The notes below the pieces were generated by a model. The model was given only the letters and a program-made list of their open reading frames with translations, was not told the origin of the DNA and ran no database searches. Shown here piece after piece: positions 18,477 through 64,000 of a stretch of 64,000 nucleotides of DNA; position 1 is the first letter of the stretch, and each line of letters starts with the position of its first letter. Source of the stretch: Perkinsus marinus ATCC 50983 (Eukaryota > Perkinsozoa > Perkinsida > Perkinsidae); contig NW_003207237.1 in assembly GCF_000006405.1 (NCBI RefSeq), positions 68,071-132,070 of the forward strand, written 5' to 3'. The position numbers were made by a program, and so were the translations under genes.

Positions 18477-18765
18477 GTTCGTTCCTGTTCGAAGGTGGTT
18501 TCCGCGCTACTTTTTCACTTTTCCATATCTTTTCGGTCGCCCAGTTTTTACGTTTCCACACAGATCGCTACTTTTCTCTCCGATCTAACTCCATCGATGT
18601 TGTGTTGGAGATCCTCTAGCAGTTGGGTTATTCATGTGGACAAGTCCTCGCTGCCTACACTAGAGTGTGTTTTCTGTGGGATTGCATATGCCCTATGGAG
18701 TTTCTACTCTGTGCCATCGTGACTGTTTGTATTTTGCTTCCTGACAGTATCTCTTGTCATTGTTA

Positions 18766-21127
18766 ATGCGTTATTCATCTTTGTTATTGCTGAGTGGCCT
18801 CGGTATAGCTCTGGGATCCACCCCTCAGGTGAGTATGGGAGTATCTATTGAGTAGTATTTATCATATCAATTCTTGGCAAAGTCTTATCTGATTTTTTTT
18901 CTCAGAGTGCTAGCAGAGATCGAGTACGACCAGATCACGATCATTGTACCGCCCTCGCGGTAGATTGTGCTGCGACCATAGATGGGGGATGCATTTCTGG
19001 AACGAGTGCTGATGGAAGTCCAATTGACTTCAGGATGGTGTAAGTACTATTCTGTCGGGGTCTTATGCAATACCTCACAATTCAGGTACGTCCCTCCGAA
19101 GACCTACGGCCCAGGTGGCAAGAGGGCCGTTTTCAAGCAAGTCGATGATTATCCAAGGATCGTTGATGCCTCCCGTGCGCCGAGTTATGCACCTACATCA
19201 CCTGAGCAGAAGGAGAGTGTCCCTATTGGTTACATCGACATGCCTGAGGGAACCACCTATGGCTACTGGGATGCCGCCTATGGTGTTATGAATGAGGCTG
19301 GTTTGTCCATGGGTGAAAGTAGCTGTAGTGGACGTCTGGCCGCTGAACCAAGGAGTATTGTTCTGATAAGCAGCACATAATTTGTGATTTATTTATTTTT
19401 TCAGAGGATGAGTACGACACTTCAGGAGCGCTTCTTTGGGTGGGGGAACTGTCGGACATAGCAATGGAGCGCTGTGCAACCGCGAGGTGTGCTATTGAGA
19501 CCATGGGTGGTCTAGCAGAGAAGTACGGGTTTTATGGTACGACAAGTATCGTGGAAGCGGGAGAAGCCTTGACCATCGCTGATAAGAGTGAAGCTTGGGT
19601 TTTCCATATCGTGGCTGATGATACTGGAAATGGTGCGGTTTGGGTGGCCCAGAAGGTCCCCAAGGGCCATGCGACCATGGTCCCTAATGTATTTGTCATT
19701 CGAGAGATTGACCCTGATGATTCTGAAAACTTCCTTTTCTCTAAGAACATATTCGATGTGGCGAGAAGGTAATAGTAAAAGGGTGTTGCAAATACACTGT
19801 AGCCATGAAAACATTGTTTTTTACGTGGTTGACGCCCTCAATCCCTAATTCTCAGGCTCGGCTGGTGGGATGGTGTTGGCAAGCTCGACTTCGTCAATGT
19901 TTACAGTGTGAGCGAGTAAGTCGAGTTGCTGCTCACGGTATCGAACCATGTTGTACTCGTTAGGTATGATCATCCTTATTATGCTGGACGTCGCTTGTGG
20001 AGAGGTCTTTCACTGTTCGCACCCTCTCTGAATCTTGACCCTAAGCTCGGTGTCGATTGGGACCATGCCACCTACCCTTTCTCTGTTAAGCCTGATGAAC
20101 CTGTTACTGTCGATTTCCTCAAACGCTTGTATCGGGATCATTACGAAGGGACTCCGTATGATCTCACTGATCACGTCGTTGCTGGTGGACCCTTCAACAC
20201 ACCCACTAGGTAGGTAGCATGAACGTCAGCATCTTCAGCTATGCTGTTGCTCTCAGATATGATGGCGCTGAAGCTGAGAAGAGCTTCAAGCATGGTGCAT
20301 GGGAACGTGCTATATCGCTGTACCGAACGCAGTATTCGTACTTCGCTGTAGCCTACAAGGACAAGGCTAATATCATTTACTTCGCCCCGGGTAGATGATT
20401 CCTGTAAGGCTTGTGTGGGAAAATTCGGGCAAGTTCTCAGGTACCCCTCATGCTAGTGTGTATATCCCCATCGTAGTAAAGCCTCAACAATCAGTGGTAG
20501 GTTGTAGTTAGCAAAGTTCACACCATCTGCTTGTCGATCAGACGTCGATCCCCGCTCTTGAATATGCCTGGCAGGGTGAGTTCAATCGCAGCTCCCTTTG
20601 GTGGGGTGTGCTCTCCGTGTCGAACGTGATGGATTTGAAGTATCGTTATATGATCGAGGATGTTCGCAAGGCTCAAGTAGCAGCGGAAACCGAAATAGAC
20701 ATGATGCTCGCAACGAAAACTGATGAAGGTAAATCCCTGGCGTGTCACCGTGGCTTTGGCTTTGTTATTTCCCGTCCTTCAGAGATCGAAGCTGCTATGC
20801 CTGAATTCTGCAGCCATTTGACCAGTAAATGGTTTGATCTTACGTTCACGCTACTCGGCAAATACCAGAACGGGTATGCCGATTGGGGTTATACGAAGGT
20901 AAGTTTCCTTTTTGGAAGTTTTTTTAATCGTTCTTGAACCACAGATTGGATATGGCCCTTCCTCGGGATGGCTCAAGCGTGCCGGCTATGATAGATTCGC
21001 AGCCTCAAAGAAGCAGTTTAAAGATCTCAGAAGACGGTATGCAAAGTGTCAAAATGAAGCTGATGAGATACGACGGAGAAACAGAGGCCAAGCTTTCGAA
21101 GCAGAAGCTGTTCTTGAAACAGAATAA
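18766..21127 (+). CDS. Peptidase C69 family dipeptidase, copy 2, with signal peptide
   Basis: Eleven exons join in phase: 18766-18828, 18906-19039, 19086-19354, 19405-19768, 19856-19915, 19964-20209, 20257-20390, 20441-20496, 20542-20728, 20783-20898, 20945-21127 (TAA), giving 603 residues. From the second exon on, phases match copy 1, and exons 6-10 have the same lengths (246, 134, 56, 187 and 116 nt). The extra first exon encodes a typical signal peptide (MRYSSLLLLSGLGIALG), so this copy is probably secreted or vacuolar. The nucleophile Cys is kept (DHCTALAVD). The C-terminus is longer than copy 1 and ends in a charged helix. It arose by tandem duplication, with the paralogues since diverged in targeting (inference). 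Confidence 0.9.
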
Positions 21128-46948: not shown

Positions 46949-47171
46949 GGCTTTATGCAATATTAACGTGCACGCGTATACAAGCTAATCGAGCATTTTT
47001 AGGTATTGATATGTAAGCATGTCGATTGCGAACACTACGATGTATAGTTATGGTCACGTGGGAGATGTATTCTTCCAATACATTTTCTGACAATGAAAGC
47101 TGATAGCAGTCAGTCATTTCAATGCATAGTCACCTTTCAACACATGAGCTTTGAGTTAATACAACAGCAGT

Positions 47172-47350
47172 GTGGTAAAATTTGCGCATGGTCAACCACA
47201 CGTGTGGGTGACAATATGGAATCTCTGAGGAAAATTTGGAAAATCCTTGTTACTTTCTGTACACTAATCGTATATATTCTCCCAATTCGCATATAAAATC
47301 CTATCATTAGTGAGGAAAATTTGGAGCTCAGCTGAGGAAAGCGAACATTT
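47172..47350 (+). repeat. Dispersed repeat copy R1
   Basis: First of four related elements. It opens TGTGG, has the core GTCAACCACACGTGTGGGTG followed by ACAATATGG, and near its end carries GAGCTCAGCTGAGGAAAGCG. It lies just upstream of the small gene at 47434. Coordinates are approximate. Confidence 0.8.
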
Positions 47351-47433
47351 TTTGCAGCACTGGTAGAACAGGACTTGCAGCACTTTATATGGGTTGTAAC
47401 TAACCAGCACGAAGAACGATACGCAAATTTCGT

Positions 47434-47774
47434 ATGGTTCACGTTAAACGTGAAAACGACGTTGGTGATGATAAGTGGCTCACGAATCGGAGCGAGAGTG
47501 ATGAGGGTGAACAGTTCCTGTTCACGGAGAATGCTGACCAAGAAGCTGAGCGCATTCGAGCGCAAGGTTCGTGCTGCGCTTGAAGGCGTTCGGTGAGCGG
47601 GAGGCAGGTAGTGGTGGTGTGACAGGTGCGGCAGAGGAGGGTGTTGTTGTCGAGTCTGCCGACGAATCTACGGTCGAGGAGTACAACGTTGTCACTTCAT
47701 CACCAACTTGGCCTAGTGATAAGAAGAAGAGATATAACGAGTCCAAGGTGTCTGAGGAGGAAGGGACTGCCTAA
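47434..47774 (+). CDS. Small acidic hypothetical protein, two exons
   Basis: Exon 47434-47566 (start MVHVKRENDVGDDKW) joins 47608-47774 across a 41-bp intron (GTTCGT...GGCAG), phase 1, to give 99 residues ending TAA. Without the intron the two coding-like frames are out of register, which supports it. The product is acidic and hydrophilic (AEEGVVVESADESTVEEYN); no family recognised. The start may lie further upstream, with repeat R1 then in an intron. The retroelement begins about 400 bp downstream. Confidence 0.45.
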
Positions 47775-47949
47775 TTTTTATGTTTGTTAATAGCACATCT
47801 AATAGTGGGGCACTGCATCAAATCTAAGCGAGATGCATAAAAACCAAAGAATATCAGCGCGCGCCATTAATGGAAAGTAAAGGTTGATATCCAGGTGATG
47901 ACAGTAACGCAAGTGAGAATCTAAACTGCAAATTCCAAAAAAAAACAAG

Positions 47950-48025
47950 AACTGCAGGTGAAAGCGGAGAAAGGGAAACCCGAAACCCCACCCGAAACCC
48001 GACGGGAAACCAGAAACCCGAACTG
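47950..48025. repeat. Degenerate GAAACCC-rich tandem words
   Basis: Repeated CCCGAAACCC and GGAAACCAGAAACCCGAAC words over about 60 bp, followed by duplicated ATCCAAGGCCA words (48028-48056). Simple-sequence expansion; resemblance to telomeric C-strand repeats is superficial. Confidence 0.6.
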
Positions 48026-48168
48026 TTATCCAAGGCCAGGCTGCAATCCAAGGCCAAGTCGAAATGCAGGTGAGAGCGTGCGCAAAACTTCTTTAGAAAA
48101 GAGGCCTATTCTTTAGAAATGAGGATTTCCCCTCTAATAGTGCTTCTGCTCTGTTGAATTGCGTTATT

Positions 48169-48584
48169 TGTGAGGGTGGGACGGTTGATGAGACGTCAGT
48201 AGTGATAGCTATGTTGGACGCATGATGGTTCCTGTGCTGTAGAGAAGAAGCAGAGGATGATCTAGGCCTTAATCGAGGAATCCTAGATGCTCTTAGCGAT
48301 ACTATAGGCTCACCAGACTCTTGATAGACACTGCGTGTAATAACCATCCCAGACTCAGCGCGACAAGACTAACTTAGATTCAATTAGTTACAGATATACT
48401 CAGAGCGCTGACTAGCGTTACAGCAATAATAGCCGTAATAAGACTCTAATACTCATTCAACACTTCAAAGGTCGCTCCAACGAGCGGTTACAGAGATCCA
48501 ATCGTTTCAGATACTTATCACTCTACAGATATTCGGGCGTGCGCGATACGACTTGCGCCGATCTTTCCCGATCGTGTCGTCACA
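48169..48584 (-). repeat. 3' LTR (416 bp)
   Basis: Matches 55730-56145 throughout by eye. It also repeats the first 59 codons of the polyprotein frame (start MVITRSVYQES), here ending in unrelated flank. On the coding strand the bases directly before it are GCTGGCGCCCAC, not the purine tract normally expected. Confidence 0.92.
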
Positions 48585-48643
48585 GTGGGCGCCAGCGATA
48601 ATCAGATACGATAATCCTCAAAATTGACTGCAAAGATAAATAG

Positions 48644-48973
48644 TTAGACGATGATAGCTATCTTTGACGACGATGACGATCTAACATTACTACGAATCAG
48701 ATAAAAAGAATAATGATCACCATATAGTCGTCTCCTTCTACCCTTCTGATGATCTTCATACACGATATAGTTAGTCTTGATACAGCATAGATCCCTGATA
48801 CGATGCCGTAGGAAATAAATTGATAATCCCTCCTCCAGATCACTGCCAGCTTCCAAGGCAGCGATGTTGTAACCAATGATATCTTCGACCTTGTGATAGG
48901 CTTCCATCCCCTTAATAAGACAATCTATAGTGATGAGATCATTAGATGATACACTTGACCGATAGTTGAGCAA
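48644..48973 (-). CDS. Extra small ORF between polyprotein and 3' LTR
   Basis: A 109-codon frame starting MLNYRSSVSSNDLITI, 41 bp after the polyprotein stop, with hydrophilic helical content (GMEAYHKVEDIIGYNIAALE) and a basic patch (KGRRRRLYGDH). No membrane segment, so not envelope-like. It could be an accessory ORF, a downstream remnant of the polyprotein, or chance. Confidence 0.4.
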   Translation of the reverse strand: MLNYRSSVSSNDLITIDCLIKGMEAYHKVEDIIGYNIAALEAGSDLEEGLSIYFLRHRIRDLCCIKTNYIVYEDHQKGRRRRLYGDHYSFYLIRSNVRSSSSSKIAIIV

Positions 48974-49014
48974 AACCTTAATTAAGTCTATCGATTAACT
49001 TAGAGCCCTTAGAA

Positions 49015-52000
49015 TTAGATCCATGGATCCCCGATGCCTAAGCTATAATGTAGCTCCCTCATAAGGAATTGGTGTTGCCGAGTTAGGACGGTAGTAGACC
49101 CACAGATATAAACCAGATCAGAGAAGAAGCACTTGCGCGACCTTGCTTGATCATCTTCGATTGAGCCAAGATAAACTCTTCCTTCGTCTTTGTCGGTGGG
49201 GGCTACGATATCGACACCTCTGCTCGATACTGAACTTGATAGGAATACCACCACACTTTCATCAGGGGGACTCATAGATAAGATAGCACCAGTAGATAAT
49301 AGATCCGATTGGAGAAGATGTCGTCTTAGATTGCTGATGCCTATGGGAAGGGGTCTCGTAGCCTTAATAGCAGTAGGGTCGTGTTGATCTTCAGTCTTCT
49401 CATCCCCTTGTTGATGGCGATTCCGAGAAGTCCTTGGCTTCGATGATCTCGAAGGATTGGCATCTTCTGGTATTAGGTCGGGGGAATCGGAAGGGGCTAA
49501 CTGGTCATCTTCTTGAACTTGATGTAGATCTTCTGAGATAGAGTGGCCTTGTGGTTGTCTATCTTGACCTTGACCTCCTTCGGATGGTGATTCATCATTG
49601 GGGGTCGTTGTAGTAGGATTTCTCCACACCTTCAGAGCATCAATGATAGCACCCTCAGTGATCAATTCTCTGACTCGTTGTAGATCTTGTGACTCATCCT
49701 TCAGAGAGTCGATAGACCCTATAGATCCTCTATGGTCGACGTAGATCCTTTGACCTCGTAGATGTTGATCTCGTATCAGGTCTTGGAAAGCTTTAGCATG
49801 TACAACATTCTTCAATGATATTAGTTGAAGTTCATGATCTTCAAATAACCGATCGATACCAGAGTTGCAGTTGTGACCGTCGGTGATGTTGGTAGGACCA
49901 GAAGACCGATGATTAGTAGAAGGAAGTGAACTTAAGTTATCGACAGTTGGTGAAGTAGGATCAGATGTGGGATTCGGACTAGACGATGACGAGTTAGATC
50001 TTTCCCAGATCTTCCTGTTGGGAAGGATCAGTTCGGGCGCCACGAGTACCGTAGCCGATGAAGTGACCTTGGCAATAGTAAAGGGTCCTTCCCATCTGGA
50101 TCTCATTTTGTTGTCGATAGCCCATCCAGTGTCATTGTAGAGGTCGATAGAGGCGTTCACCCAATCAGATACTTGTTGTCGATGGTCATCAGCGATTTTG
50201 GCATCCCAATCTGTTGTAGCTTCAGTGATCTTCCGCCAGATAAGTCGACCAACCATTGTATGCTCTAGAACAAGCCCGAGAGGATCGTATAGAGATAGAA
50301 GATAGGAGCTAGCCTTCCTCTTAGTGATACAATCTTCTTCAGATAGTCGATCTGCTTCGTAAACAGCATGTAGAAGATCAGAGGATCGACGAAATAGATA
50401 GCCAAGTAATTTCTTCAGTGCCTCGGGCTGATCTTGATGTTGTTCATCGACCCATGATGTGAAGTTCTTGTTGGGATCGAATAGTTTATGATGTCCCTCG
50501 TAGATGTGTGCAGCAAAGCTGTAGCAGTCGATAGTGTGTGATCTAGATAAACCACCGATGTAGACGTCGTCAACGAACCAGACCATCGATATCACGATAG
50601 GGACTTGTGGTCCGAATCGGATCCAGTCGACATTGTCGTTAGTGGGGCATAAGAGAACATTCATCAGATCTTCTGTGAGTAGATTCCAACCAGGAACTGT
50701 CGATGTAGGCGGTCTCGATGATTCTCTAGCTTTAGCGGTTGAAATGACTTGATAGATCTCATCAGACATGTCGTTGATATCAGTCTCCAACATAGCTGGC
50801 GCACAAGTAGATCCAAAGCTGACTCGATTCCACAACAGAGTGAAATTGCCGATGCAAGTATATCCGATAAACGGAATATCGCTTGGATCCGCGAACATTT
50901 CACAAAATGCTTTGGATATGTCAGCTGATATCACATACTCCATTGATCTTACCGATAGTAAAGTACCAACTAGATTATGTTGAGTTGATCCTCCTCGATT
51001 CGAGAATCGATTTAGGACTCGATAATCTAGTACAATCCTACACGGAGTAGTGCAGTGATCCTTACGAAACACCATGTGGCTCGGCGTATAGTGGATAGGC
51101 TTAGGTACGATAGATCCTGCCATAGATGTACCTTCATGTAGAACACGCCAGATAGCTTGACAACGTTCAGATGATGGTGGGATTGTATAGTTGCCGATAG
51201 AGTTGTCTTGGACAATACCACAGTACTTCCGGTCGATGAAGGTGTTCAGGGATTGGTGAAATAGATCCTTTTCCTCGGGTGATAGTCGTTGGACTGAAGC
51301 CGCTCCTCGGCGCGCCGCGATCCTAAAGTTGTGATCGGGCCTGTCTGATGATAACCATGGTACTGATAGTTGGCAACGTCCTAACGGAGCGCTGAAGTCG
51401 GGTATCCATTGTCGTTTGATGACTTCCCATGGCGGGAGATCGTCGGTAGGATCAGATTGTAGTTGTAGGTCAGGATGTAGTGGAACGTCTTCCATATCAG
51501 TAGCACCATAAGGATCGTTGGTGATCACGTCCGGGATTGAGTTCATGATACGGGGAACGGCATTGTTGTTGGTAACCTTCCCATTCCAGATACCACCATG
51601 AAGGAGATCGAGATGGGTTGTGACGTCGTTAGAGGCCATTATCGTAGAACATGATGAAGTTGGTAGGTCATCATTCACCACCCTGACGACATGAGAGGTT
51701 GGTTGATGAGTAATAGATACGCCACCAAAACCTTTGATCTCAGCAGGTTGTCGTTGCTTGGCTGATCTAGAGATAGTCTTATAGATCTGCCTATGGAACG
51801 ATGAAGTAAGATCTTCGATCCCACTGAAGACCACGGAGCCACTAACCGTGAAGACAATGGCACACTGTAGTTGTTGTAAGGCCGGACATCCAAGGATAAC
51901 TGGGCTAGATAGTGAGTTGTCTGTGACGGCGAACCTTTCTGTGATCTTGATGTGCCTGGTCTCGATAGGTATAGAGACATGGCCGATGACCTTGATGCTG

Positions 52001-55000
52001 GTGGTGTTAGCAACCTTCACATTAGAATTTGTGGTGGATGAGAAGATAGGACAGTCACCACCGAAGATTTTCTCCAAGGCTCCGATAGCGATTAAAGAGA
52101 TATCGGCTCCAGTATCAAACAGAACAGGCCGGGTCTCAGGACCGATCTTGATCACGCCAACAACAACATCGCAACGAGTAGATGAAGTTGAAGATGAGCA
52201 GATATTCGAGGTAGATGTTACCTTAGGATCACCAAAGACCTTATCCGAGCTGTTGGCCTTCATAGTCTTGAGTTGATTGGGAACCGACTCCGATACCGTT
52301 AGAATCGATGATTCAGGATAGTGATGCGATACAATCATGTTAGTTTGGGCGTCGTTGTAGATGTCGTACTCATTATTTGCATCACTTGAATCATCGTTAT
52401 TCTCGTTGGGATCTACACCAGAGATCTTGACTTCGGGAGTAGGTGGTGTTGGGAGCTGTTGAAGATTACCATCGGTTGTAGATGAGGTTGTAGCCTGGAT
52501 ACTTGATGGACCGGGAGATTTCCCTTTTCCTTTACCAAGGCCCTTGCCTTTACCTTTACCACCTTTACTCCTCATTGATACCGTAGGGGATGGTAGCGGG
52601 TCAGGGCATACATAAGCTAGATGGCCTTCTCGACCGCAGCGATGACACGTGGCAGTCGTAGAGACGTTACATTTGTCGATGGTATGGGTAGGGTTGCCAC
52701 ACCGGATACATCTCTCGTCCTTCTTACCGATATCATTAGTACAATTCCTAGCAGGATGACCATCCTGTAGGCACCTATAACATGTGATGGATTGTTGATC
52801 ACGAACCACCGCATAGACATAGTAGACATCGTCATCAGTTGATGATCCAGAAGGAATAGGGGATCCATCATGATAGTCATCAGAGTGGTCGTTGTTGATG
52901 ATGTTGCTCACCGTAGCTTGACGTCGTTGATCAGGATGTCGTCCACCATACAACCGGAGAGTAGCGGGATCAGCTTCCTTCTTAGATAAGCGCCCTTGTC
53001 TCCTTCGATCATACTTGATCAGCTGCCGTTTGAAGCGGGGATAGTCTATACGGTGATCATCGACGTCACGATCCATCTTATCTCTAAGACGGTCGTTTAA
53101 TAATCCATCATACAGACGTCGCTTGATGATGTCATCCAAGATACTGACACCTAGTAGACATAGTTGATTAGCATAACCATCCAATCTTGAGATAAACTGA
53201 TTGACCGTCTCCTTAGGTTCTTGTTGTAGATGATTGAAGTCGTTCTGGAGTTTCAGTAGGACTTCTTGGTCACTGTAGAACTCATTGATCTTGTTGATTA
53301 GTAGATCCCAATGACGATCATAGTCCTTGTGACATAGTGCAGGATCAGTTTCGTCACGTACAAGATCGTCCCAGACGGTGTTGATGGTATTGAGACGGGC
53401 AAAGGTATAACGAACAAGATTCCTTTGGCCAACCGTCCGTTTAAAGATCTCTTGGATCCAAGCTGCACCAGAGCGTCGATCATCAGCACCTTGATAGTGG
53501 TTCTTGATAGCGAGACCTTTTGCCGTATTGGTAGCGATTTGGAGATCCTTATCAGAGATCTTGTGTCGGCATTTGGTATGTCTACAACCCGGACAGCGGT
53601 CATAGGTCTTGTTGCCGAACAGATTAGGGGGTCGATACATTCTGCCAGAAGTGATTCCAGGCAGATGTTTCAACGTAGGGTAGGGTCTTGATAGAGCACG
53701 ACCCGAAGCAGAAGAAGGGCTAGAAGAAGATGAGCTCGATGATAGGCTTCTCCGACGGCGTTGATGGGAACGTCGAGAACGACGAGAATCATGATCGTCA
53801 CCAGAAGAATCCGATGAACCAGAAGGAGAGCCAGATGGATCACGTCTTCTTGTAGACCTCATAGCAGCTCTACGAGATGGTTGTTGATGATGTTCACGAT
53901 AATTCTCGTGATGACTTCTCGAACCATTTTTAGCAGCAGATGAAATAGAAATAACTTCAACAGGTTTAGTAGAATCTACTTGTTCTAGAGGGACTCGATC
54001 ATCAGCAGTAGTGATATCCTTGACAGTGGTGTCGTAGATAGGAACCGATTGCTGAGGTCGTGAACCATCAACTGTTAGAGTAGAGCTAGCAGCAGCTGAC
54101 GAGTAGTCTTTGATAACCGTACCACAAGACTGATGCTGTTCACTATGTTGGGAATCTTTGATGGGGTTGGGGTAGTGCTCGATGTTCAGGAAGTTGGGAT
54201 CACTCATTGACTTCTCGATGATAATGGGGTGGCTTAGGAAGATTGGTCGTAGATAGTCGTCTTGAATGATATTATAGAGTAGCTCTCTATCCTTTGTGAT
54301 CATGTCCAGATAGAACTCGTTATACAGGATCTTGTCACTAACTCGCAAGTTTGATAGGATGCTCTCTCGTAGACGATGTTGACCATTTAATGATGCCACG
54401 TTAGCTTGTAGTGGATGTTCTTGAGCTCTTTCATATCCGACCTGTCTCTGGATAAGGTTTTCTTGACGAACATAGGAACCTTTGATAGTCGTACGATCAT
54501 CTGTTACTGGAGGCTTAGAGACTCTTCCATGATCTAATTGATGACCTTGTTGCTCATATGGTCTATCATGGATAGGTCTGTCGTTACTCGACATTACCAC
54601 TTCTTGATGACGATGTAGTCGATCAGTACTCGGCACAATCACTTCACGATGATCTCCAATAGGCTTGACGTTACTCGACTTTACCACTTCTTGATGATGA
54701 TGTAGACGATCAATACTCGGTAGAGACACTTCACGATAGCCTTCGGTAGATTTAACGTTACTCGATGTTACCACTTCTTGATGACGATGTAGTCGATCAT
54801 TACTCGGTAGAGTCACTTCACGACGACCTTGCCTCGCCCCAGTGTTAGGATGTACTGGACGAATATGTTCTCTTGTTGTCGGGAACCTTCTTATAGACAC
54901 CGGTCTGGATAGATGCACATTATCCGGATAGTGCATTGATTGGAGCTGATAACCACTTGACAAAGATGTATCATACGGATAGTTTCCAGTGCCGAACTCC

Positions 55001-55908
55001 TGATCGGGCTGATGAATGGCGACCCCGGGGTTGTTAGTGTCGTTGTCGTTCATGTAGGGTATGTTCCTTTGTTGGCGTTGATCATGATGTAGATGAACTT
55101 GTCTTATACTCTCGATATCTGGTTGGAGGAGATGTTCTGGTACCAATTGATGACATTCTTCGTCTCTAGAACCATTGGAACCTTCGGCTCGTTGATGATG
55201 TATCGGCAAGGATAGACGATTCTTCCATAGAATATCGAGTTCAGCCTGGGATGTTGGGCAAGATACTGGAGACCGAGGATCCTTTCGCAAAGGATGTTGA
55301 TCTTCTTGTTGGGGAGTTTGGTCCGATAGAGCTGACCCTTGATCCTTTCGTAAGGAGTTCAATCTCGTTAGGACAGCCCGGTTTGTAAGAGGGACCGGAT
55401 AGCAGTTCCCAACATGAGGAGATTGGTCATAATACGGAACCTGATCCCTACGCGAAGGATCCGAATACCCAGCATGAAGAGAATGGTCTCGTATCAAGCC
55501 TTGATCATTGCGAAAATGATCACGTGATTCAGGTTGAACAAAATGGTCTTGCACCGATAGAGGATCTTGTAGATTTAGATCCGACATGTGAGCTCGAGGA
55601 TGATGTTCTTGTACCAGTGTAGAATGATGCTGTAGCTCATTAGGGTCTCCAACTCGATTATGAGGTAGACGTTCATAGTCTTGATTCTTAGAGCCAGACG
55701 ATTGGGCGGGAATACCAATCCCGGTAAAATGTGAGGGTGGGACGGTTGATGAGACGTCAGTAGTGATAGCTATGTTGGACGCATGATGGTTCCTGTGCTG
55801 TAGAGAAGAAGCAGAGGATGATCTAGGCCTTAATCGAGGAATCCTAGATGCTCTTAGCGATACTATAGGCTCACCAGACTCTTGATAGACACTGCGTGTA
55901 ATAACCAT
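49015..55908 (-). CDS. Retroelement polyprotein (Gag-protease-RT, internally deleted)
   Basis: One frame of 2,297 codons starting inside the 5' LTR. Residues 1 to about 600 are hydrophilic His/Asp/Arg-rich with internal repeats (RLHRHQEVV variants). After an RS-like patch comes a Gag-type helical region (about 780-1000), then three CCHC-like knuckles: CYRCLQDGHPARNC near 1040, CIRCGNPTHTIDKC and CHRCGREGHLAYVC. The protease motif LFDTGADIS is near 1265. RT shows CRIVLDYRVLN, SADISKAFCEMF (about 1660) and the catalytic WFVDDVYIGG (about 1776); the A17-like segment has LSLYDPLGLV (about 1870). Sequence then jumps to an integrase C-terminal-like patch (RWEGPFTIAKV, about 1936) with neither RNase H nor the integrase zinc finger/DDE core between. 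A 350-residue Ser/Asp-rich tail follows. Confidence 0.9.
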   Translation of the reverse strand: MVITRSVYQESGEPIVSLRASRIPRLRPRSSSASSLQHRNHHASNIAITTDVSSTVPPSHFTGIGIPAQSSGSKNQDYERLPHNRVGDPNELQHHSTLVQEHHPRAHMSDLNLQDPLSVQDHFVQPESRDHFRNDQGLIRDHSLHAGYSDPSRRDQVPYYDQSPHVGNCYPVPLTNRAVLTRLNSLRKDQGSALSDQTPQQEDQHPLRKDPRSPVSCPTSQAELDILWKNRLSLPIHHQRAEGSNGSRDEECHQLVPEHLLQPDIESIRQVHLHHDQRQQRNIPYMNDNDTNNPGVAIHQPDQEFGTGNYPYDTSLSSGYQLQSMHYPDNVHLSRPVSIRRFPTTREHIRPVHPNTGARQGRREVTLPSNDRLHRHQEVVTSSNVKSTEGYREVSLPSIDRLHHHQEVVKSSNVKPIGDHREVIVPSTDRLHRHQEVVMSSNDRPIHDRPYEQQGHQLDHGRVSKPPVTDDRTTIKGSYVRQENLIQRQVGYERAQEHPLQANVASLNGQHRLRESILSNLRVSDKILYNEFYLDMITKDRELLYNIIQDDYLRPIFLSHPIIIEKSMSDPNFLNIEHYPNPIKDSQHSEQHQSCGTVIKDYSSAAASSTLTVDGSRPQQSVPIYDTTVKDITTADDRVPLEQVDSTKPVEVISISSAAKNGSRSHHENYREHHQQPSRRAAMRSTRRRDPSGSPSGSSDSSGDDHDSRRSRRSHQRRRRSLSSSSSSSSPSSASGRALSRPYPTLKHLPGITSGRMYRPPNLFGNKTYDRCPGCRHTKCRHKISDKDLQIATNTAKGLAIKNHYQGADDRRSGAAWIQEIFKRTVGQRNLVRYTFARLNTINTVWDDLVRDETDPALCHKDYDRHWDLLINKINEFYSDQEVLLKLQNDFNHLQQEPKETVNQFISRLDGYANQLCLLGVSILDDIIKRRLYDGLLNDRLRDKMDRDVDDHRIDYPRFKRQLIKYDRRRQGRLSKKEADPATLRLYGGRHPDQRRQATVSNIINNDHSDDYHDGSPIPSGSSTDDDVYYVYAVVRDQQSITCYRCLQDGHPARNCTNDIGKKDERCIRCGNPTHTIDKCNVSTTATCHRCGREGHLAYVCPDPLPSPTVSMRSKGGKGKGKGLGKGKGKSPGPSSIQATTSSTTDGNLQQLPTPPTPEVKISGVDPNENNDDSSDANNEYDIYNDAQTNMIVSHHYPESSILTVSESVPNQLKTMKANSSDKVFGDPKVTSTSNICSSSTSSTRCDVVVGVIKIGPETRPVLFDTGADISLIAIGALEKIFGGDCPIFSSTTNSNVKVANTTSIKVIGHVSIPIETRHIKITERFAVTDNSLSSPVILGCPALQQLQCAIVFTVSGSVVFSGIEDLTSSFHRQIYKTISRSAKQRQPAEIKGFGGVSITHQPTSHVVRVVNDDLPTSSCSTIMASNDVTTHLDLLHGGIWNGKVTNNNAVPRIMNSIPDVITNDPYGATDMEDVPLHPDLQLQSDPTDDLPPWEVIKRQWIPDFSAPLGRCQLSVPWLSSDRPDHNFRIAARRGAASVQRLSPEEKDLFHQSLNTFIDRKYCGIVQDNSIGNYTIPPSSERCQAIWRVLHEGTSMAGSIVPKPIHYTPSHMVFRKDHCTTPCRIVLDYRVLNRFSNRGGSTQHNLVGTLLSVRSMEYVISADISKAFCEMFADPSDIPFIGYTCIGNFTLLWNRVSFGSTCAPAMLETDINDMSDEIYQVISTAKARESSRPPTSTVPGWNLLTEDLMNVLLCPTNDNVDWIRFGPQVPIVISMVWFVDDVYIGGLSRSHTIDCYSFAAHIYEGHHKLFDPNKNFTSWVDEQHQDQPEALKKLLGYLFRRSSDLLHAVYEADRLSEEDCITKRKASSYLLSLYDPLGLVLEHTMVGRLIWRKITEATTDWDAKIADDHRQQVSDWVNASIDLYNDTGWAIDNKMRSRWEGPFTIAKVTSSATVLVAPELILPNRKIWERSNSSSSSPNPTSDPTSPTVDNLSSLPSTNHRSSGPTNITDGHNCNSGIDRLFEDHELQLISLKNVVHAKAFQDLIRDQHLRGQRIYVDHRGSIGSIDSLKDESQDLQRVRELITEGAIIDALKVWRNPTTTTPNDESPSEGGQGQDRQPQGHSISEDLHQVQEDDQLAPSDSPDLIPEDANPSRSSKPRTSRNRHQQGDEKTEDQHDPTAIKATRPLPIGISNLRRHLLQSDLLSTGAILSMSPPDESVVVFLSSSVSSRGVDIVAPTDKDEGRVYLGSIEDDQARSRKCFFSDLVYICGSTTVLTRQHQFLMRELHYSLGIGDPWI
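55704..55717 (-). other. Candidate primer-binding site
   Basis: On the coding strand TGGTATTCCCGCCC starts 12 nt after the 5' LTR. It begins with TGG as expected for pairing to a tRNA CCA end, but the spacing is long and no tRNA is identified; the site lies inside the polyprotein frame. An alternative TGG-type motif (TGGCGCCCAC) abuts the other LTR. Confidence 0.3.
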
Positions 55909-56145
55909 CCCAGACTCAGCGCGACAAGACTAACTTAGATTCAATTAGTTACAGATATACTCAGAGCGCTGACTAGCGTTACAGCAATAATAGCCGTAAT
56001 AAGACTCTAATACTCATTCAACACTTCAAAGGTCGCTCCAACGAGCGGTTACAGAGATCCAATCGTTTCAGATACTTATCACTCTACAGATATTCGGGCG
56101 TGCGCGATACGACTTGCGCCGATCTTTCCCGATCGTGTCGTCACA
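55730..56145 (-). repeat. 5' LTR (416 bp)
   Basis: Coding-strand start TGTGACGACACGATC, end CCCACCCTCACA. The polyprotein ATG lies 238 bases into it, so the promoter and transcription start must lie in its first half. Outer flank TATT matches the other end. Confidence 0.92.
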
Positions 56146-56221
56146 TATTATATTATTGGGCGCGCGCTAATGTCGGTAGATTCGCGCAACATTTAACATT
56201 CCGCTGTCGCATATTACCACG
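56146..56221. promoter_or_regulatory. Short spacer between 5' LTR and GAF gene start
   Basis: Only 76 bp separate the element from the first ATG of the downstream plus-strand gene, so that gene's promoter either fits here or was displaced or replaced by the divergently oriented LTR. AT-rich TATTATATTATT lies at the junction. Confidence 0.35.
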
Positions 56222-59200
56222 ATGTCAACTATTCATGATATGCGAGTGATAGCGCAGGAGAAAGATCGCCGGAAGAAATGCGTGGTGAGTCGCTTGGAGA
56301 GAAAGCTGCGGACCGGAATGCAGTTGAACTCGGAATTCGTGAGCTCTGTCGATAATCGACGCTAGAAATTCTCGGGAATGTCTCATTTGATCAGAAAGGT
56401 TGTGGAAATTTTGTTGTTGTTATTCGCGACGCGGTTTTCACAGGAATCTCGATTGCCTGCTATATACGATCCGAAAGTTGTGGAAAAAAAGACGAAAAAA
56501 CGAATCGCCACGACTCTGGCAAATCCAGCGGAGCGTAAGGCTTTCCCACTGCATCCTACAAAACTATAAGGATTCGTTCAGCTACGCCTGAAGAACCGAC
56601 GAGCCCGCGAGACGAGTTGGCGACTTCCAACTCTTGGGCTCCTGAGCCATCCCGGGACTCTATAGGTGGCCTTTCATCTACTTGGAAGTGAGCAGGGAGT
56701 TACCGCGTAGAGACGCCCTCAAGAATGTGTCTTTCAGGACTGATTGTCAATCAGCACGGGCCCGTTGGGGCTACAACAAACGCCTTAGGAACATACGCGA
56801 AGCTCATGGAGGTATAACATCTGTCAACTCGTCAGAGGAAGTCAAACTTGACCATAGAGTAATATTCAGCTCTAGGAAAGCCTCGTTGATTTCGCGAATC
56901 CTAGGTGACCGAACTCATGGATATGTGCGTGGATGTTGTCGAAAAGCAGAAGCGACGTAATAGCACTACTTTCTCTCTGTCAGTCGTGTACTATTGTCTT
57001 ACTCCAGGATGGGACCAAGTTAGAGGAGCTCTCACCCAACTGGCCAGACGCACTGACTCTTCGGAGGCAGTTCGAATAGTCGACGGTCTTGTGGCGGATC
57101 TCGGTGATACTCTGAATGCCGAGTCGGGGATCGTTCGTCTGAGCCGGAAGGTAGTGTACGGGTCTGAACTCGCTGGTTTGAAGTGTCCACCCAGGCTCAT
57201 GCATACGCGGTTGATCATAGATCTGCTGAGACAAGGTGCGAGGCGCTTCAGAAACAGGTATTTCTGGGATTTAACTTCTCCCTTGCTCTCGTGTTGCATT
57301 GTTTCTACTCGTAGTCTTCTATGTAAGTGTAAGCGTTGTGTAGGTGAAAAGCCTCGAGACTGAGCTGACTGTGACCAAGATAGAGCTGGCCAACAGAACT
57401 AAGGAATGCGAAATGCTACAGCGACGGGTTAATACGAATGCCCACAGGTAGTGGGCCTGGCTTGTCACAGGAGTCTGCAGATTCACTGGTTATGATGGTA
57501 TGCAAGGTACGAGCAGTTGTCCAAGAACGTCGATACATTGCAGCGTGAAATCGCTATTGCGACCAAGGAACGGAAAGCAGCACAAGGGAGTAAGACCCAG
57601 CTCAACACCGCCCTCCCAGACGATAAAGGCGCCCATGCAAAGCGGGCCCGCTACCTCTCTAATCAGCTGGCCCTCACTGTAAGAGAGGAGCAGGTGTATC
57701 GACCCAGGATTGGCCATGTACAGATGCAACAACTGACAGCACTTGAGAGGCAGAAGAAATGGTGGATGGCGAAGAGTGCGGTTCTGGAAGCAGAGACTAT
57801 GTCACTTATCACCTATCATCAAAAGGCTCCGATGTGAGTTCATAAGCTACCTTCCTTCACGGAGACTTTGTCCAGAGCACTCATGAACGACGATGCCCGG
57901 TCGAAGCTCATTCAGCTCGTGTGGAAAGTTATGAACGAGAACCCGCTGGAGAATGGGTGGGCAAAGAGCCTCTGCTGGAGCTGTGGGTTTTACTGCTGTT
58001 TATTAGATATAGTTTTGTGAATACGGCGTCCCAGTTGAAGAGTATGCTGGGCGAGGCCTTCGGTAAAAAGGTGACGAAGTTACCTCAGATTCCGCCGTAT
58101 CGTCAGCGCGGTGCAACAATGGTATGAGAGCTGGGCATTCACACTGTGAATGATTCTTTCTATATGTAGATCACAACATTCACGGCCAACCGCTTGCCTA
58201 TTCCGAAGGGTTATATGGTTTTGTCCCAAGAACAGACTGATTTCCTAACAATGGTAGGCAGTGGTGAAAAATATGTAATCGCCTTCCTCAGCTGAGCTTG
58301 ACAGTTTCCTCACTAAATATACACGTCAACATACGCATGAGTGTAAAAATGTAGACCTCAATGAGAATTTCTCAAAATTTCCTCCCAGAATTCTCATATT
58401 GTCACCAACATATGTGGTTGACCGCGTGCATACTTTCCCTCCACACCGATGGTAGGAGGGGGAGCAGACAGGAATCGGTACGGATTGATCGGTAGGTTGC
58501 ATCGACTCGTGGGAGATGTACTCTGCCCTATCTGTGCGATTCGGACTGTGTGTCCACCGAGCAAGGCAGGCAGGAGTGTATCACGGCACTGGGCACTGAA
58601 TTCTGGGCACAGCAGAGGTTCTGGCCAACTCACTCGTCATGTTGCTACTGTTGGGATCCTTAAGATATGCAAACGCGATCGGCAAAGCCTTCACTCGGTT
58701 GAAGGAACTATTCGAGGTCCGGGCGTTGGATCATTTGATTAAAACACTCATTGTAACATGTTCATCTCCTAACGCTGCGACGACGTTATTCATGGTAGAG
58801 CATAAGTTGCGAAGCGCTCGACTGTGATCGCGGCTCGCTGTGGGTAGTCGATGCAAGGCAGAATGTCATGTGGACATACGTGCAGAACGCGTATGGGAAT
58901 GAATTCACGAAGCTGGAGGTGGGGAAATCGGCGAACTCGCGAGGGCACTTTAGATGATGCCCTTAGATGGAATTGCCGAAGCGTGGTACTGACCCCTATG
59001 CGGAGAATATTGGTCTGGTGGCGAGCGCTTACCTTTTGAAGCAACCCATAAGTATATACAATGCATATGAGGACAAGCGATTCAATAGCAGGTAGAAAGG
59101 AAGGTGAAAGTGCATCGCTCCGCTGTATTATTGTGATGCAGTTTTGATCGCGTCACTAACTATCGCACAAGTTCAGTGTTGTGCATACCGGTCGTGAGTG

Positions 59201-61285
59201 GAGGCAGAGTTACGTGCGTTGTAAGCTCATCACAAGAGCTATATTAGTGCCAATGTGATCGATACCAAGGTTCAAGTAGTAAACAAACGTCGTGAACCAG
59301 TCTTCGACCAAGACGATGAAGCCCTTTTGAAGAACATCGCGGTAGCATTACCGATGTTGGCTAGATGATGACGGGCAGCTCAGGTCCTCGGGCTGGAGAT
59401 GATCATGGTATTCGAGAAGTCGGCCGTAAGTGGATTCTCGATGAAGCGTGAGCCTTGGAAGTGAATCTGCCCGATTAGCGATTGTTATGGTATGCAGGTC
59501 AGAGTTATCTGCTGCAATTCGCTACTGAGATCATGCAGTACTGTGCAGACCCGAATACGTTGCTGGGGCTGTTAACATTGTAATACAGGCTCTTTGTGAA
59601 CTCAATGGTCGAATATGCAATTACTATTAAATTTTTATAGTCGGATTTATTCAGCTATAATATTTGGTTTGTTTTCGTAGGTATATGAATGAGCTATTCC
59701 GAGCAAAGAAGGTCGCTCTTCATATCGTTGTCGGTGACATGACTGCGCAAATTGTGAGGAGGACTCTTCGCGAGCACGACTTGGACGGTATGGCAGGTGC
59801 ACGGTGGAGCTCAGCCTAAGAATACACATGGGAGTCCGACGCCTACACGTGTTATTCCGGATCAGAAACAGTTGGAGAAAAACTTGAAACCACACCTTGG
59901 TGAAATGACAGGAATTGTGGGAGAGACGGTATGAGAAATAATAGATATTTAAAAATATTCCGCTTGGAAGGTGAACTCGAAGAGCCCGCTTACGTTCTCC
60001 TTCCCGGCTGGTGATGAGCTCAAGTCAGCCGCAGCGAAACATGTACGGAGCTTAGCTTTAGTCGGCAATGCTGGAGGTGACTTATTGGCCTTCAGGATCC
60101 GCTCAGGGGAATCTATGATGAATCGGTCGACCTGTCACCACCTGATAATAATGATCTTTATGCACGTAGGGATAGTCAAAAGAAAAGGTAGATAGTGTGT
60201 GTCAGTTCTTGATGTGAGCATCCTGGCTCCTTATGTAGATATGTGCTTCATTCGTATCCTTTGTTCGACAAGAGATCTGTCACGGCAGTTCTCCAATTCG
60301 TGTGTGTTGATGGCAAGAAAACTAGCTTTGGAAATGACGAGGAATTCGACCCCTATAATGTTAGCCATACTAAGGTAAGAAAGGACTCCTTGAACAAATG
60401 AGCTAATAGATATCCAGTATTAATAATAATAACCAAACTATACTATCGAGTAATGTATAGTAGTGGAGTTACACGACCGTGATATGAAAAACACTAGTGA
60501 AAAACATATTTCACGACTACTACAGGAATCCGCGAATATCGCGTTTTCACGGAGTTTTACGCCATTTCACGTAAAACGGGTGAAGCTCCAATATATCAAC
60601 TAATAATATCGGATATTTTTCGGGAGAATTAATGTCTGATTTGGTTCATACTCAGGTTTTGAAACAGATATGCAACTACATTGTTGTTGTGATGAGAGAT
60701 TGGTACACTTCAGCTGAGCGTAAGGATCTTCATGAACGCTGGGCTAAGGCTGCGAGGACCAAGAGCCCTGCAGATATAGCGATGGCTGCATGTAGGAGAG
60801 TTTTCATTTTGTGGTCAGCAAAGTGATTTTTCCTGTCTTAGTTATTCTCGGGAAGTATAACAACAATGTTGGGGGCGCAAATTCTGAAAAAGCTGTCAAC
60901 GGTAAGTTCTGGAAAGCAACGACAAGGGACGAAGTTTGGCGGTCTTTTAGGGGGTACTGGAGTGAGGAAAAGCTCACGAGAGGAGGGGCAGAAGGCTCCT
61001 TCTGGTAAGGCTCAAGGTGGAGGGTCGCTGTGGGGACTCACAGAAGGGGAGAGGCAGAGCGATTGGAAAAACGCCGAAGTAATAGGGCTTGATTCGTGTC
61101 ACCACGTGTCACCATGTTGAATCGTCAGCCTGGATGGGAAGTGCGCAATTTGTCTACGATCTACCAAGCGTCGTTTGAGGCGGGTCTTATCAGCGCTCAG
61201 GTAATCATCATCCACGAATACTATTACTATCAAGTTTTTCTCTTCGTATTCTCAGGACCTTATGAGCATGATGAGCTCATCATGA
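56222..61285 (+). CDS. Coiled-coil protein with two GAF-like domains, multi-exon
   Basis: Starts at ATG 56222 (MSTIHDMRVIAQEKDRRKK). Coding blocks: an N-terminal charged region (56,600-57,160; RWGYNKRLRNIREAHG, VTELMDMCVDVVEKQKR), a long coiled coil (57,350-57,830; TLQREIAIATKERKAAQG), then LMNDDARSKLIQLVWKVMN. A first GAF-like domain spans about 58,800-59,370: LWVVDARQNVMWTYVQNAYG, GLVASAYLLKQPISIYNAYE, LCIPVVSGGRV and VQVVNKRREPVFDQDDEALL. A second follows at about 59,500-60,375: YLLQFATEIMQYC, AKKVALHIVVGDMTAQIV, RSVTAVLQFVCVDG. A final region (60,632-61,285) contains VRNLSTIYQASFEAGL. GAF domains bind cyclic nucleotides or other small ligands; no phosphodiesterase, cyclase or kinase domain is visible. 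Joins are only partly settled and a second gene may start near 60,632. Confidence 0.6.
58255..58445 (-). repeat. Dispersed repeat copy R2, nearly filling an intron
   Basis: Inverted relative to R1. On the minus strand it opens TGTGGAGGGAAAGTATG, then has GGTCAACCACATATGTTGGT followed by GACAATATGAG, and later AGTGAGGAAACT and AAGCTCAGCTGAGGAAGGCG. It starts within a few bases of the donor GTAGGC at 58254 of the GAF gene and occupies nearly all of that intron. Confidence 0.85.
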
Positions 61286-61759
61286 TGAACCACATATCCA
61301 ACCGCTTAGTTTTATCAATTAGATGTGTTGATGTGTACCTGACCACATTGGGAGTTGCGTTCGAGCCGCGGGTTAAATGTGTGGGACCTTCACCTTGCAG
61401 AAGTTTGGTCTTCATGGTGTATGAATAGCCGACAATGTCAGTCGGTGTGTTGTGATGATGGGGACTGTTCGGCATGGAAGTGAATGCAATAGCAATAGAG
61501 ATAAAGAGGAGACTAGAGAATAGCTGATCCCCCGGCAGAATTTCCAACATTGATTATGGAAGCATGCAGTGAAGTCCTTCGTTATGAAGGTGATAGAGCG
61601 TGTGTTCCATCGGGAGTTGGGTGGATGTAAAGATGTGGTTTTTTGTTAGCATTCTGTCCACTTAGATGTGGTAAGGGTGAACGTAATAACCATACCTTTG
61701 TTGTGGTCACTTTTTTGAGATTTTCGCGAATTAGTTCACTTGTTTTTCGACACTTTATC
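61286..61759. other. Spacer before the glucokinase gene
   Basis: No defined gene. A coding-like block near 61,545-61,620 (LIMEACSEVLRYEGDRACVP) may be a further exon of the upstream gene. The rest probably holds the glucokinase promoter. Confidence 0.3.
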
Positions 61760-64000
61760 ATGGTGCAGAGTGGGATGCTACCGACAGTCATAAACACTTT
61801 CTTGCCCTTGCTGGTTCTCTTCATAGCAGTGGCTTACGTGTAATACAGCTAGAAAGGGAACTTGGAATACACTTCTTGTTGGTGGCAGGTATTTCTGTGG
61901 CGATTACACCAGTCGTGAGGTTGTTCATCATAATACAGCATTTGTACACCCGTCGGACAGGAAGCTTATCGATAAGCATGAACTACTAGAAGTAATGGAT
62001 GACAGCATCACCGAACTGAATACGCTTGTGTAGGCGCAGTTATCCGAAGAGGCGGCGACTCGACGAAGAATAGAAGCTCATCCGAAAAGTGTCGTGCTGG
62101 GGTTTGGAGCATGCCTGGATGGAGTTACTCGTGGAGTGGATCTACTCAGGGAGGTACTATTGATATGCTATGAAGTCGGCAGTTTACGGTATTGTGGGAA
62201 AATATGTGCATGCTCAACTACATGTGTTGGTGACAATATGAAAATTCTGGAGAAACATGGGGAAGTTCTTATTGGTTTCGGTACACTCCTACCCGAATTC
62301 GTGTGTAAACTACTACGTGAGGAAACCGCCGACCTCAGCTGAGAATAGCGAACATATATTCCGGCATTTTCTCAGCTGCACATAGAGCCTTCTGAGCACC
62401 CCCAGGATCATGATGTCATCACCAGTCGGGAGGATTTGGCCGAAACTTTTCACTATTTTTTTGAGCACGGTGCTGCGGCTGAGCGGTAGTAATTTCTCCT
62501 CATAATTCCCTTATGGATTTCGCTCCGCCTCAGCTACGTCTCAAACAGGACACTCTTCGATGAACTGGTCACTGCAGTGCGGAGTTTTGGTGATCATTAT
62601 GGGACTTTCTGGAGATTCGGTGGCAACGCTCCACATATGGGGTGTAGGATCAAGCTGGAGGTAAAGCACTACCTTTCCACGGCGTAATTTATGCTCATTA
62701 CATCGCGCTGTGGGAGGGGGGCAACTCGCACTTCACCACCTCGTCGTTGTTCATTCAGGGGCATGATGTTCTGTTGGGCGCACATGTCTCGAAAGAGCTC
62801 CGAGATCAGTTCGCCGTGTCCTTGCCGGTAGCAGGAGGTCTGGCATCAGCATCAACGGAAGGTAGACTCTGTATGAAGTGATGATGAACTGTTCGCCTTG
62901 CAGGAAGTGGAGACGATATCCACATCATTTTGGAGAGCATTTCTGATGAGACTTGGGGTTCCGACATTTGTCCGAGGGCTAACCGTTTAGGTAGTGATGA
63001 AGCCCCTCGTTTCTAGGGTCGTATTTTGCGCAGCTCTTCATAGCGATATTCACTCACCGTATCTGCGCGGTATAGAGGAGATCCAGGAGGAAATAGGCTC
63101 GGGTGCATTCAAGCCCGACGCCTTGGTCCTGGGGGCTTTCCAAATGATGGATGGGTGACACCATGAACATCTCGTCGGAGGGAATTCTGGGAGTGTTTAG
63201 GTTCCCGTTCCCAACAGAAGGGGAGCGGCTAGAGCGACTTGAGCGGGCTCGACAGCTGATTGATGCACAGGGCCCTTCCGTAAAGGTCCACGTTGAACTC
63301 GCTAGTTTCGCCAATTGTGAGTGATGCCCGTCTGCGTAGTAGTAGCAGCTCATCGTGCCTTGCAGCTCAGTTCATGAGAGAGTTGTATGATACCGGTATG
63401 CTGACTAGAGTCGATAGTCTTGGGATGAATGAACAGGAGCTAACGACATTCACGGACTGGCTGGGGTAGGGGGAAGGAGAGTGTGTGGGGAAAGATGCAT
63501 ATGGTCAACTACATGTGTTGGTAACAATATGGGAGTTTCTGTACATTTCTACCCCAAGTCGTATGTACACTTGTGTAGTGAGGAAACCTCTGAGCTCAGC
63601 TGAGGAAAGCAAGCATAAATCCCAACACTTCCTGCTGCTGATGATGATGATGATGATGATGATGAGTGAATCTTTGCCACAACGCTTGAATATAAAATTT
63701 ACGTTGTAAATGCGTCTTCCTGCGGTTCTTGCATGCCCTATTGGTTTTCCAGAAAGTCGTCTACGAGCGATGGGAGTCTCATCCGCGCTTCGGAGTCTCG
63801 TCCTAAAGTTCGGAACGTTTTGGATGCGTTACGAAGCCTTTGGAAACTGATTGAAGAAGTGAATGAGAAAACGTAGTATTCAGCTCGTTACGGTATGCAT
63901 TGATGATCTGTCAGGAACTCCACGAGGCAGGTATCTCGTATACACGTTCACACTCTAGCCTTCCAAGCTGTTTTGGTCAAGACCGATGCCTGGAACAGAA
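61760..64000 (+). CDS. ADPGK: ADP-dependent glucokinase (3' partial)
   Basis: ADPGK phosphorylates glucose using ADP; the animal enzyme is ER-associated. Exons that join in phase: 61760-61839, 61889-61991, 62034-62153, 62406-62485, 62534-62660, 62759-62861, then from about 62,885 onward to the right edge. The N-terminus has a hydrophobic anchor (TFLPLLVLFIAVAYVYFCG) as in metazoan enzymes. Family blocks in order: VVLGFGACLDGVTRGVDLL, SREDLAETFHYFFEHGAAAE, WRFGGNAPHMG, IHIILESISDETWG, PRANR, FKPDALVLGAFQMMDG, KVHVELASF, SLGMNEQEL and SRIHVHTLAFQ at the edge. The 42-bp intron 61992-62033 removes an otherwise in-frame TAG. The C-terminal catalytic GxGD region is outside the window. Two introns contain dispersed repeat copies. 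Confidence 0.9.
62194..62375 (+). repeat. Dispersed repeat copy R3, in a glucokinase intron
   Basis: Opens TTGTGGGAAAATATGTGCAT, then CTCAACTACATGTGTTGGTG followed by ACAATATGAAAATTCTGG, and near the end GTGAGGAAACCGCCGACCTC and AGCTGAGAATAGCGAACAT. Lies in the 252-bp intron 62154-62405. Confidence 0.85.
63482..63635 (+). repeat. Dispersed repeat copy R4, in a glucokinase intron
   Basis: Opens GTGTGGGGAAAGATGCAT, then GTCAACTACATGTGTTGGTA followed by ACAATATGGG, later GTGAGGAAACCTCTGAGCTC and AGCTGAGGAAAGCAAGCAT. Followed by a short GATGAT microsatellite (63639-63665). Confidence 0.85.

What the first reader, a model, noticed from the sequence alone, without database searches (positions are those of the whole stretch)
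47172..63635. Dispersed 150-190 bp repeat family that sits in introns (possible introner-like element)
Four copies (47172-47350 +, 58255-58445 -, 62194-62375 +, 63482-63635 +) share a TGTGG start, the core CAAC[CT]ACA..TGT.GGTGACAATATG and an end with GAGCTCAGCTGAGGAAAG. R2 almost exactly fills an intron of the GAF gene; R3 and R4 are in glucokinase introns; R1 lies between coding blocks. No ORF or clear terminal inverted repeat is present. Intron-filling repeats could be MITEs or elements that create introns.
Basis: partly seen in the sequence, partly recalled or inferred. Interest (0 to 1): 0.8.

Follow-up and report, generated by a model that had tools for sequence, protein, structure and literature searches.

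The report
Short hAT-like transposon family in Perkinsus
The repeats are old copies of a short cut-and-paste DNA transposon in the oyster parasite Perkinsus marinus that often landed inside introns that were already there, so this looks like an ordinary mobile element and not one shown to make new introns.

Summary
The four repeats are real: a profile search finds exactly four copies in the window at E<1e-3, and genome-wide a 29-base core has 1,088 near-matches against 0 for its reversed control. The consensus is 185 bp with an imperfect terminal inverted repeat (15 of 18) and an 8-bp target-site duplication (z 10.6 over 63 full-length copies; 10.2 over 58 after dropping near-duplicates): the signature of a non-coding hAT-type MITE. 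The host is Perkinsus marinus: three annotated proteins map without mismatch. R3 and R4 are in glucokinase introns; R2 takes only the first part of a 545-nt intron. In 9 homology-supported host introns the element is never within 10 nt of both splice sites, the published introner criterion (PMC9860276). Two ABC-transporter introns become 50- and 38-nt GT-AG introns without element and duplication. Against this, four of the nine would be shorter than the 42-nt minimum seen in 36 repeat-free introns, one of them 12 nt. Introner reading: not supported, not fully excluded. The autonomous partner was not identified.

The parts
47168..47362 (+). Copy R1 (195 bp)
   Evidence: Profile positions 1-184 of 185, 151 bits; also present in the homologous contig C164
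47160..47167 (+). R1 left target-site duplication TACAACAG
   Evidence: 7 of 8 against TAGAACAG one base beyond the right end
47364..47371 (+). R1 right target-site duplication TAGAACAG
   Evidence: positions read
58259..58448 (-). Copy R2 (190 bp), opposite to the GAF gene
   Evidence: Profile positions 5-184, 135 bits; ends set by the duplication, read; present in C164
58251..58258 (+). R2 duplication ATGGTAGG, spanning the exon/donor boundary ATG|GTAGG
   Evidence: 8 of 8 identical to 58449-58456 (read)
58449..58456 (+). R2 duplication, second copy ATGGTAGG
58254..58798 (+). GAF-gene intron that holds R2 (545 nt, GT-AG)
   Evidence: Spliced alignment of annotated P. marinus protein P0121, no mismatch
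62190..62369 (+). Copy R3 (180 bp)
   Evidence: 160 bits; present in C164
62154..62375 (+). ADP-dependent glucokinase intron that holds R3 (222 nt)
   Evidence: Spliced alignment of P0001; solved structure 5ccf aligns across the junction
63481..63630 (+). Copy R4 (150 bp)
   Evidence: 132 bits; 93% identical copy in C164
63466..63752 (+). ADP-dependent glucokinase intron that holds R4 (287 nt)
   Evidence: Spliced alignment of P0001; 5ccf aligns across the junction

Best explanation
The repeats are copies of a non-autonomous, non-coding DNA transposon (MITE), most likely of hAT type, about 185 bp, in the genome of Perkinsus marinus. A hAT-type transposase supplied in trans would have bound the short terminal inverted repeats and subterminal motifs, cut the element out, and inserted it with an 8-bp staggered cut, leaving an 8-bp duplication (inverted repeat and duplication shown; transposase inferred). 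Insertions were tolerated where they did not break coding sequence, so surviving copies sit in pre-existing introns and, by prediction, between genes; a copy in an intron is spliced out with it by the host's own GT and AG (inferred from annotated proteins; no RNA was seen). The family is old: copies are a median 84.5% identical to the consensus over aligned bases, the best of 63 is 91.4%.
For: Family far above control: 29-mer 1,088 vs 0, 18-mer 2,863 vs 2, TIR 17-mer 1,473 vs 1. 8-bp duplication: 45.8% identity at k=8 against 25.5% shuffled, z 10.6; other k from 3 to 12 at most 3.1 (63 copies); z 10.2 after dropping 5 near-duplicates (58 copies). 15 of 63 copies match at 6 or more of 8 unshifted, 0.5 expected; 14 of 58 without near-duplicates. 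Consensus TIR 15 of 18. hAT dimerisation domains in the same genome, 14 matches. In 9 supported host introns none has both element ends within 10 nt of the splice sites. ABC intron a: duplication well inside, 50 nt left; ABC intron b: perfect duplication GTAACTCT, 38 nt left. None of 173 hits lay mainly in predicted exon, masked or unmasked (the masked run penalised exon inside elements).
Against: No hAT gene with matching ends on both sides was found: 10 hAT loci of about 2.2-3.2 kb and one extended locus. The superfamily thus rests on TIR and duplication; P elements also make 8-bp duplications (recalled), and the P-domain search was uninformative (nothing rang in the controls). 48 of 63 copies show no clear unshifted duplication; R3 and R4 show none I can recognise. 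Four of nine introns would be 38, 35, 34 and 12 nt without element and duplication, below the 42-nt minimum of 36 repeat-free introns (for R3 and L025 the 8 nt subtracted is an assumption). The supported introns rest on annotated or predicted proteins, not on RNA.
Confidence: 0.86

Rival explanations
1. Introner-like element: each insertion into an exon creates a new spliceosomal intron, with splice sites carried by the element or recruited from the duplication.
For: 3 of 4 window copies are in introns. R2's duplication contains the used donor, and its empty site happens to read as an open frame. In the L010 BTB gene the element reaches 4 nt from the acceptor and only 12 nt are left without it; two predicted introns (L022:1494-1658, L017:1461-1630) are also almost all element. 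An early gene model trained on the elements gave 2 of 38 introns with both ends within 10 nt (L015:7052-7206, L017:4075-4199), and a later unmasked run put 41 predicted splice sites inside elements, many in arrays. 23 of 63 single copies have an AG in their last 20 bases (6 of 63 in reverse).
Against: 0 of 9 supported introns and 0 of 25 predicted with elements masked meet the published both-ends rule. The annotated R2 intron keeps a further 347 nt. ABC introns a and b leave 50- and 38-nt GT-AG introns. The consensus has no AG in its last 20 bases in either orientation. Only 1 of 14 clear duplications contains AGGT or ACCT. Empty sites are open 20 or more codons on both sides in 21% of 62 against 25-28% of random sites.
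Confidence: 0.07
2. MITE of another superfamily that makes 8-bp duplications (for example P).
For: 8-bp duplications are not unique to hAT (recalled); no hAT partner with the same two ends was found.
Against: The CAG start and short imperfect TIR resemble hAT MITEs such as Mar, CAG(G/A)GGTAGGC (PMC3517528, passages), and hAT domains are present.
Confidence: 0.12
3. A conserved intronic regulatory or structural-RNA motif, not a mobile element.
For: Some blocks (around GGTCAACTACATGTGTTGG and TCAGCTGAGG) are better conserved, 89-92% in ten-base bins, than the extreme ends (77-79%) and part of the middle (75-85%).
Against: 8-bp duplications, both orientations, no Rfam match in the window at gathering scores. 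Conserved subterminal blocks are usual for transposase binding (recalled).
Confidence: 0.03

Closest known systems
hAT-superfamily MITEs, e.g. Mar of Drosophila willistoni (PMC3517528, passages seen)
   Same: Non-coding, short imperfect TIR starting CAG, 8-bp duplication
   Different: 185 bp against 610 bp; different sequence; autonomous partner not identified here; duplications (n=15) lean to T at 2-3 and A at 5 and 7, not clearly Mar's nnnTAnnn
Introners (PMC9860276, results part 1 and section 15 read)
   Same: Short elements, often with TIR and duplication, found in introns; aquatic protist host
   Different: Element does not extend to both splice sites in any of 9 host introns tested; most host introns stand without it
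Introner elements of Amoebophrya (PMC7789003, passages seen)
   Same: Alveolate host, inverted and direct repeats
   Different: Those are defined among non-canonical introns, with 3-5 nt direct repeats overlapping the exon/intron boundaries; here the 42 protein-mapped introns are all GT-AG and the repeat lies inside the intron

Membership tests
MITE of the hAT superfamily | 8-bp target-site duplication | tested here: met
   z 10.6 at k=8 over 63 copies, 10.2 over 58; 15 of 63 at 6 or more of 8 against 0.5 expected
MITE of the hAT superfamily | Short terminal inverted repeats (5-27 bp; PMC3517528, passage) | tested here: met
   15 of 18 in the consensus; imperfect in single copies
MITE of the hAT superfamily | No coding capacity, short, high copy number | tested here: met
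   185-bp consensus; 1,088 near-matches of the 29-mer
MITE of the hAT superfamily | Termini shared with an autonomous hAT element | tested here: inconclusive
   14 hAT-domain matches; in 10 loci no TIR at 4 or fewer mismatches except one weak site. One hAT frame (L050:1798-3972, 725 aa) has an element 3' end at 4289-4371 in the same direction, but no partner 5' end between it and the next full copy at 672-838
Introner | Similarity between introns starts within five exonic or ten intronic bases at both splice sites (PMC9860276, section 15) | tested here: not met
   0 of 9 homology-supported introns; 0 of 25 predicted, elements masked; 2 of 38 in an earlier element-trained model
Introner | Insertion creates the intron (orthologue lacks it) | not testable with these tools
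   No DNA of other Perkinsus species was at hand; indirect evidence against from residual introns
Introner | Carries or recruits functional splice sites | tested here: inconclusive
   Consensus ends carry no AG within 20 bases, but 23 of 63 single copies do; donor lies in the duplication for R2 and at its edge for ABC intron b, and the acceptor lies 4-6 nt from the element in L010 and R3. No RNA was available

The most novel reading that the evidence does not exclude
A minority of copies have become almost the whole of an intron and lend it a splice site: in the BTB gene of L010 the element end itself appears to have evolved into the acceptor, so old MITE insertions may gradually take over the host intron ('intron replacement') or, rarely, have founded it.
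Probability: 0.13. Interest if true: 0.55.

Novelty: new member of a known kind. Interest (0 to 1): 0.25.

Why it matters
It gives Perkinsus a well-defined, abundant MITE family and accounts for some of the unusually long introns in the genes examined, which helps gene annotation and repeat masking. It is also a caution: intron-resident repeats with inverted repeats and duplications can look like introners until the host intron is tested with the element removed.

Tried and rejected
Empty-site coding test (62 of 63 copies used, one too near a locus end): no excess of open frames. Home-made gene finder: exact for 19 of 33 known introns in its final round (21 in its first); its split of 173 hits into intron and intergenic was unstable (67/106 with elements masked; 136/37 unmasked; an earlier model trained on the elements gave 166/5 and 153/18 of 171), so I claim no intron enrichment. 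An apparent orientation bias (106 opposite/47 same masked and 100/66 unmasked) shrank to 38/29 and was dropped. Insertion differences between homologous contigs: in three pairs the copies within the aligned stretches were shared. Long relative with the same ends and duplication in fetched loci: none found. P-element domain: uninformative. Pfam on nine segments: six had no domain across the junction, two of these were later confirmed by P0123. The 15-residue insertion in the P. chesapeaki glucokinase model at R4's intron looked like a retained intron, but no GT donor fits the residues, so it was not used.

Full report
Observation. The window is C23:68071-132070 of a 54.46-Mb eukaryotic assembly in 347 contigs. 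A profile built from full copies finds exactly four copies in the window at E<1e-3. Genome-wide, the 3' motif GAGCTCAGCTGAGGAAAG has 2,863 places at two or fewer mismatches against 2 for the reversed pattern; the 5' 29-mer has 1,088 at three or fewer against 0; the terminal 17-mer 1,473 at one or fewer against 1. The 18-mer count is inflated by minisatellite arrays made of the element's last ~50 bp. In 274 kb of window and 10-kb loci, mostly chosen around copies and so biased, the profile finds 94 5' ends where the 29-mer finds 26, and 134 3' ends where the 18-mer finds 83. Scaling by these, or by the window density of 4 per 64 kb, gives very roughly 3,400-4,600 copies and fragments.

Organism. 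Spliced alignment puts the glucokinase protein P0001 (first 424 of 532 residues given) and the GAF protein P0121 (all 754) of P. marinus ATCC 50983 on the window without a mismatch, with 11 and 22 GT-AG introns. A third, P0123 (first 1,099 of 1,519 residues), maps the same way on L028 with 9 introns, and its database contig has the same length, 625,208, as contig C34 that holds L028. These proteins are database annotations, not RNA evidence of mine.

Anatomy. The consensus is 185 bp: CAGTGTGGGAAAATATGCACATGGTCAACTACATGTGTTGGTGACAATATG ... GAGCTCAGCTGAGGAAAGCGAACATATATTCCAACACTG. The two ends form an imperfect inverted repeat, 15 of the first 18. Over 63 full copies the flanks match at exactly 8 bp (45.8% against 25.5% for shuffled partners, z 10.6); other lengths from 3 to 12 have z of 3.1 or less. 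Five copies are near-duplicates of others; without them z is 10.2. Fifteen of 63 copies have 6 or more of 8 unshifted, 0.5 expected. R2 has a perfect duplication, ATGGTAGG; R1 has 7 of 8 with a one-base shift; R3 and R4 have none that I can recognise. Median identity to the consensus over aligned bases is 84.5%, range 74-91%. All four window copies are shared with the homologous contig C164 (about 92-95% identical), so they predate that divergence.

Where the copies sit. R3 and R4 are in glucokinase introns of 222 and 287 nt, R2 at the start of a 545-nt GAF intron. Three more copies are in ABC-transporter introns given by P0123. Three predicted introns are supported because a Pfam domain runs across the junction: BTB in L010, aminotransferase V in L018 (three copies in a row), gamma-tubulin complex C-terminal domain in L025 (nine segments given, six without a domain across the junction). 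In these nine introns the element lies within 10 nt of one splice site in four cases and of both in none. Removing element and 8 nt per copy leaves 347 (R2), 34 (R3), 129 (R4), 50, 38 and 337 (ABC a, b, c), 12 (L010), 94 (L018) and 35 nt (L025). The 36 repeat-free introns of the three protein-mapped genes have a minimum of 42 and a median of 49 nt, so four of the nine residues are below that minimum. For R3 and L025 no clear duplication is seen, and without the 8-nt subtraction they would be 42 and 43 nt; ABC b has a perfect duplication, so a 38-nt intron must be allowed; L010 needs another explanation. ABC b and R2 show how a duplication can overlap or abut a donor: the intron was, on this reading, already there and the duplication merely copies its first bases.

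Introner test. The published survey keeps an intron family only if similarity starts within five exonic or ten intronic bases at both ends (PMC9860276, section 15 read). This family fails in 9 of 9 supported introns and in 25 of 25 gene-finder introns with one full copy when elements are masked (the sets overlap). Masking forbids splice sites inside elements; in unmasked runs 2 of 38 introns passed with an element-trained model, and a second model placed 41 splice sites inside elements, many in arrays. None of those is supported by homology. The consensus ends contain no AG within 20 bases in either orientation, though 23 of 63 single copies have one (6 of 63 in reverse). Of 14 clear duplications one contains AGGT or ACCT. 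Joined empty sites are open for 20 or more codons on both sides in 21% of 62 copies against 25-28% of random sites. The gene finder puts none of 173 hits mainly in exons, but its intron/intergenic split is unstable, so intron enrichment is neither shown nor excluded.

Against this reading. L010's BTB intron cannot have been a 12-nt intron before insertion, so either flanking sequence was lost or the element end became the acceptor. L022:1494-1658 and L017:1461-1630 are similar but lack full support (in L017 the fn3 match only begins at the junction). The autonomous partner was not identified: hAT domains occur 14 times, 10 fetched loci hold no convincing matching TIR, and one hAT frame has an element 3' end about 317 bp after its open frame ends but no matching 5' end, which may be chance.

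Literature. Searches for Perkinsus with introner (1 paper), with introns and transposable (21 papers, 15 listed), Perkinsus marinus with transposon (39, 15 listed), Perkinsus with MITE (9) and with genome assembly, repeats and introns from 2020 (15, 10 listed) listed no title or abstract start that reports this family; only listings were seen for those, plus passages of PMC7789003. Perkinsus is not named in the main text of PMC9860276; its supplements were not read. Repbase was not searched, so the family may be catalogued there.

Verdict. Probably a new family of a well-known kind, useful for annotation, not shown to be a new way of making introns. On checking against the calls I lowered confidence in the MITE reading from 0.88 to 0.86, raised the introner rival from 0.06 to 0.07 and the novel case from 0.12 to 0.13, because of the short residual introns and the AG counts.

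Noticed in passing
window 47703-56146: LTR retroelement with identical 416-bp repeats at 48169-48584 and 55730-56145 and a 2,304-codon open frame; the homologous contig C164 lacks it, so probably a recent insertion. Described only.
   Followed up: partly
L011:2201-3427 and 7078-7444; L016:2651-3463 and 4637-4976: Minisatellites of 59-64 bp units, up to about 20 copies, made of the element's last ~50 bp plus TATAGG.
   Followed up: partly
L018:4805-5383: Three element copies in a row; the first two are each flanked by the 8-mer GCTGCGAC, inside one intron of an aminotransferase-V gene.
   Followed up: partly
L050:1798-3972 and 4289-4371 (C254): A 725-aa open frame with a hAT dimerisation domain followed about 317 bp later by an element 3' end in the same direction; no matching 5' end seen. 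A lead to the autonomous partner.
   Followed up: partly
L046, L047, L048 (C79, C157, C333): Three hAT-domain loci identical over about 2,398 bp and then different, suggesting a recently copied element whose end does not resemble this MITE.
   Followed up: partly
window 16328-21127: Two tandem, about 72%-similar stretches that the gene finder joined into one protein.
   Followed up: no
P. chesapeaki protein P0003 at R4's intron: Extra 15 residues at R4's intron position; could be part of a retained intron but no donor fits.
   Followed up: partly
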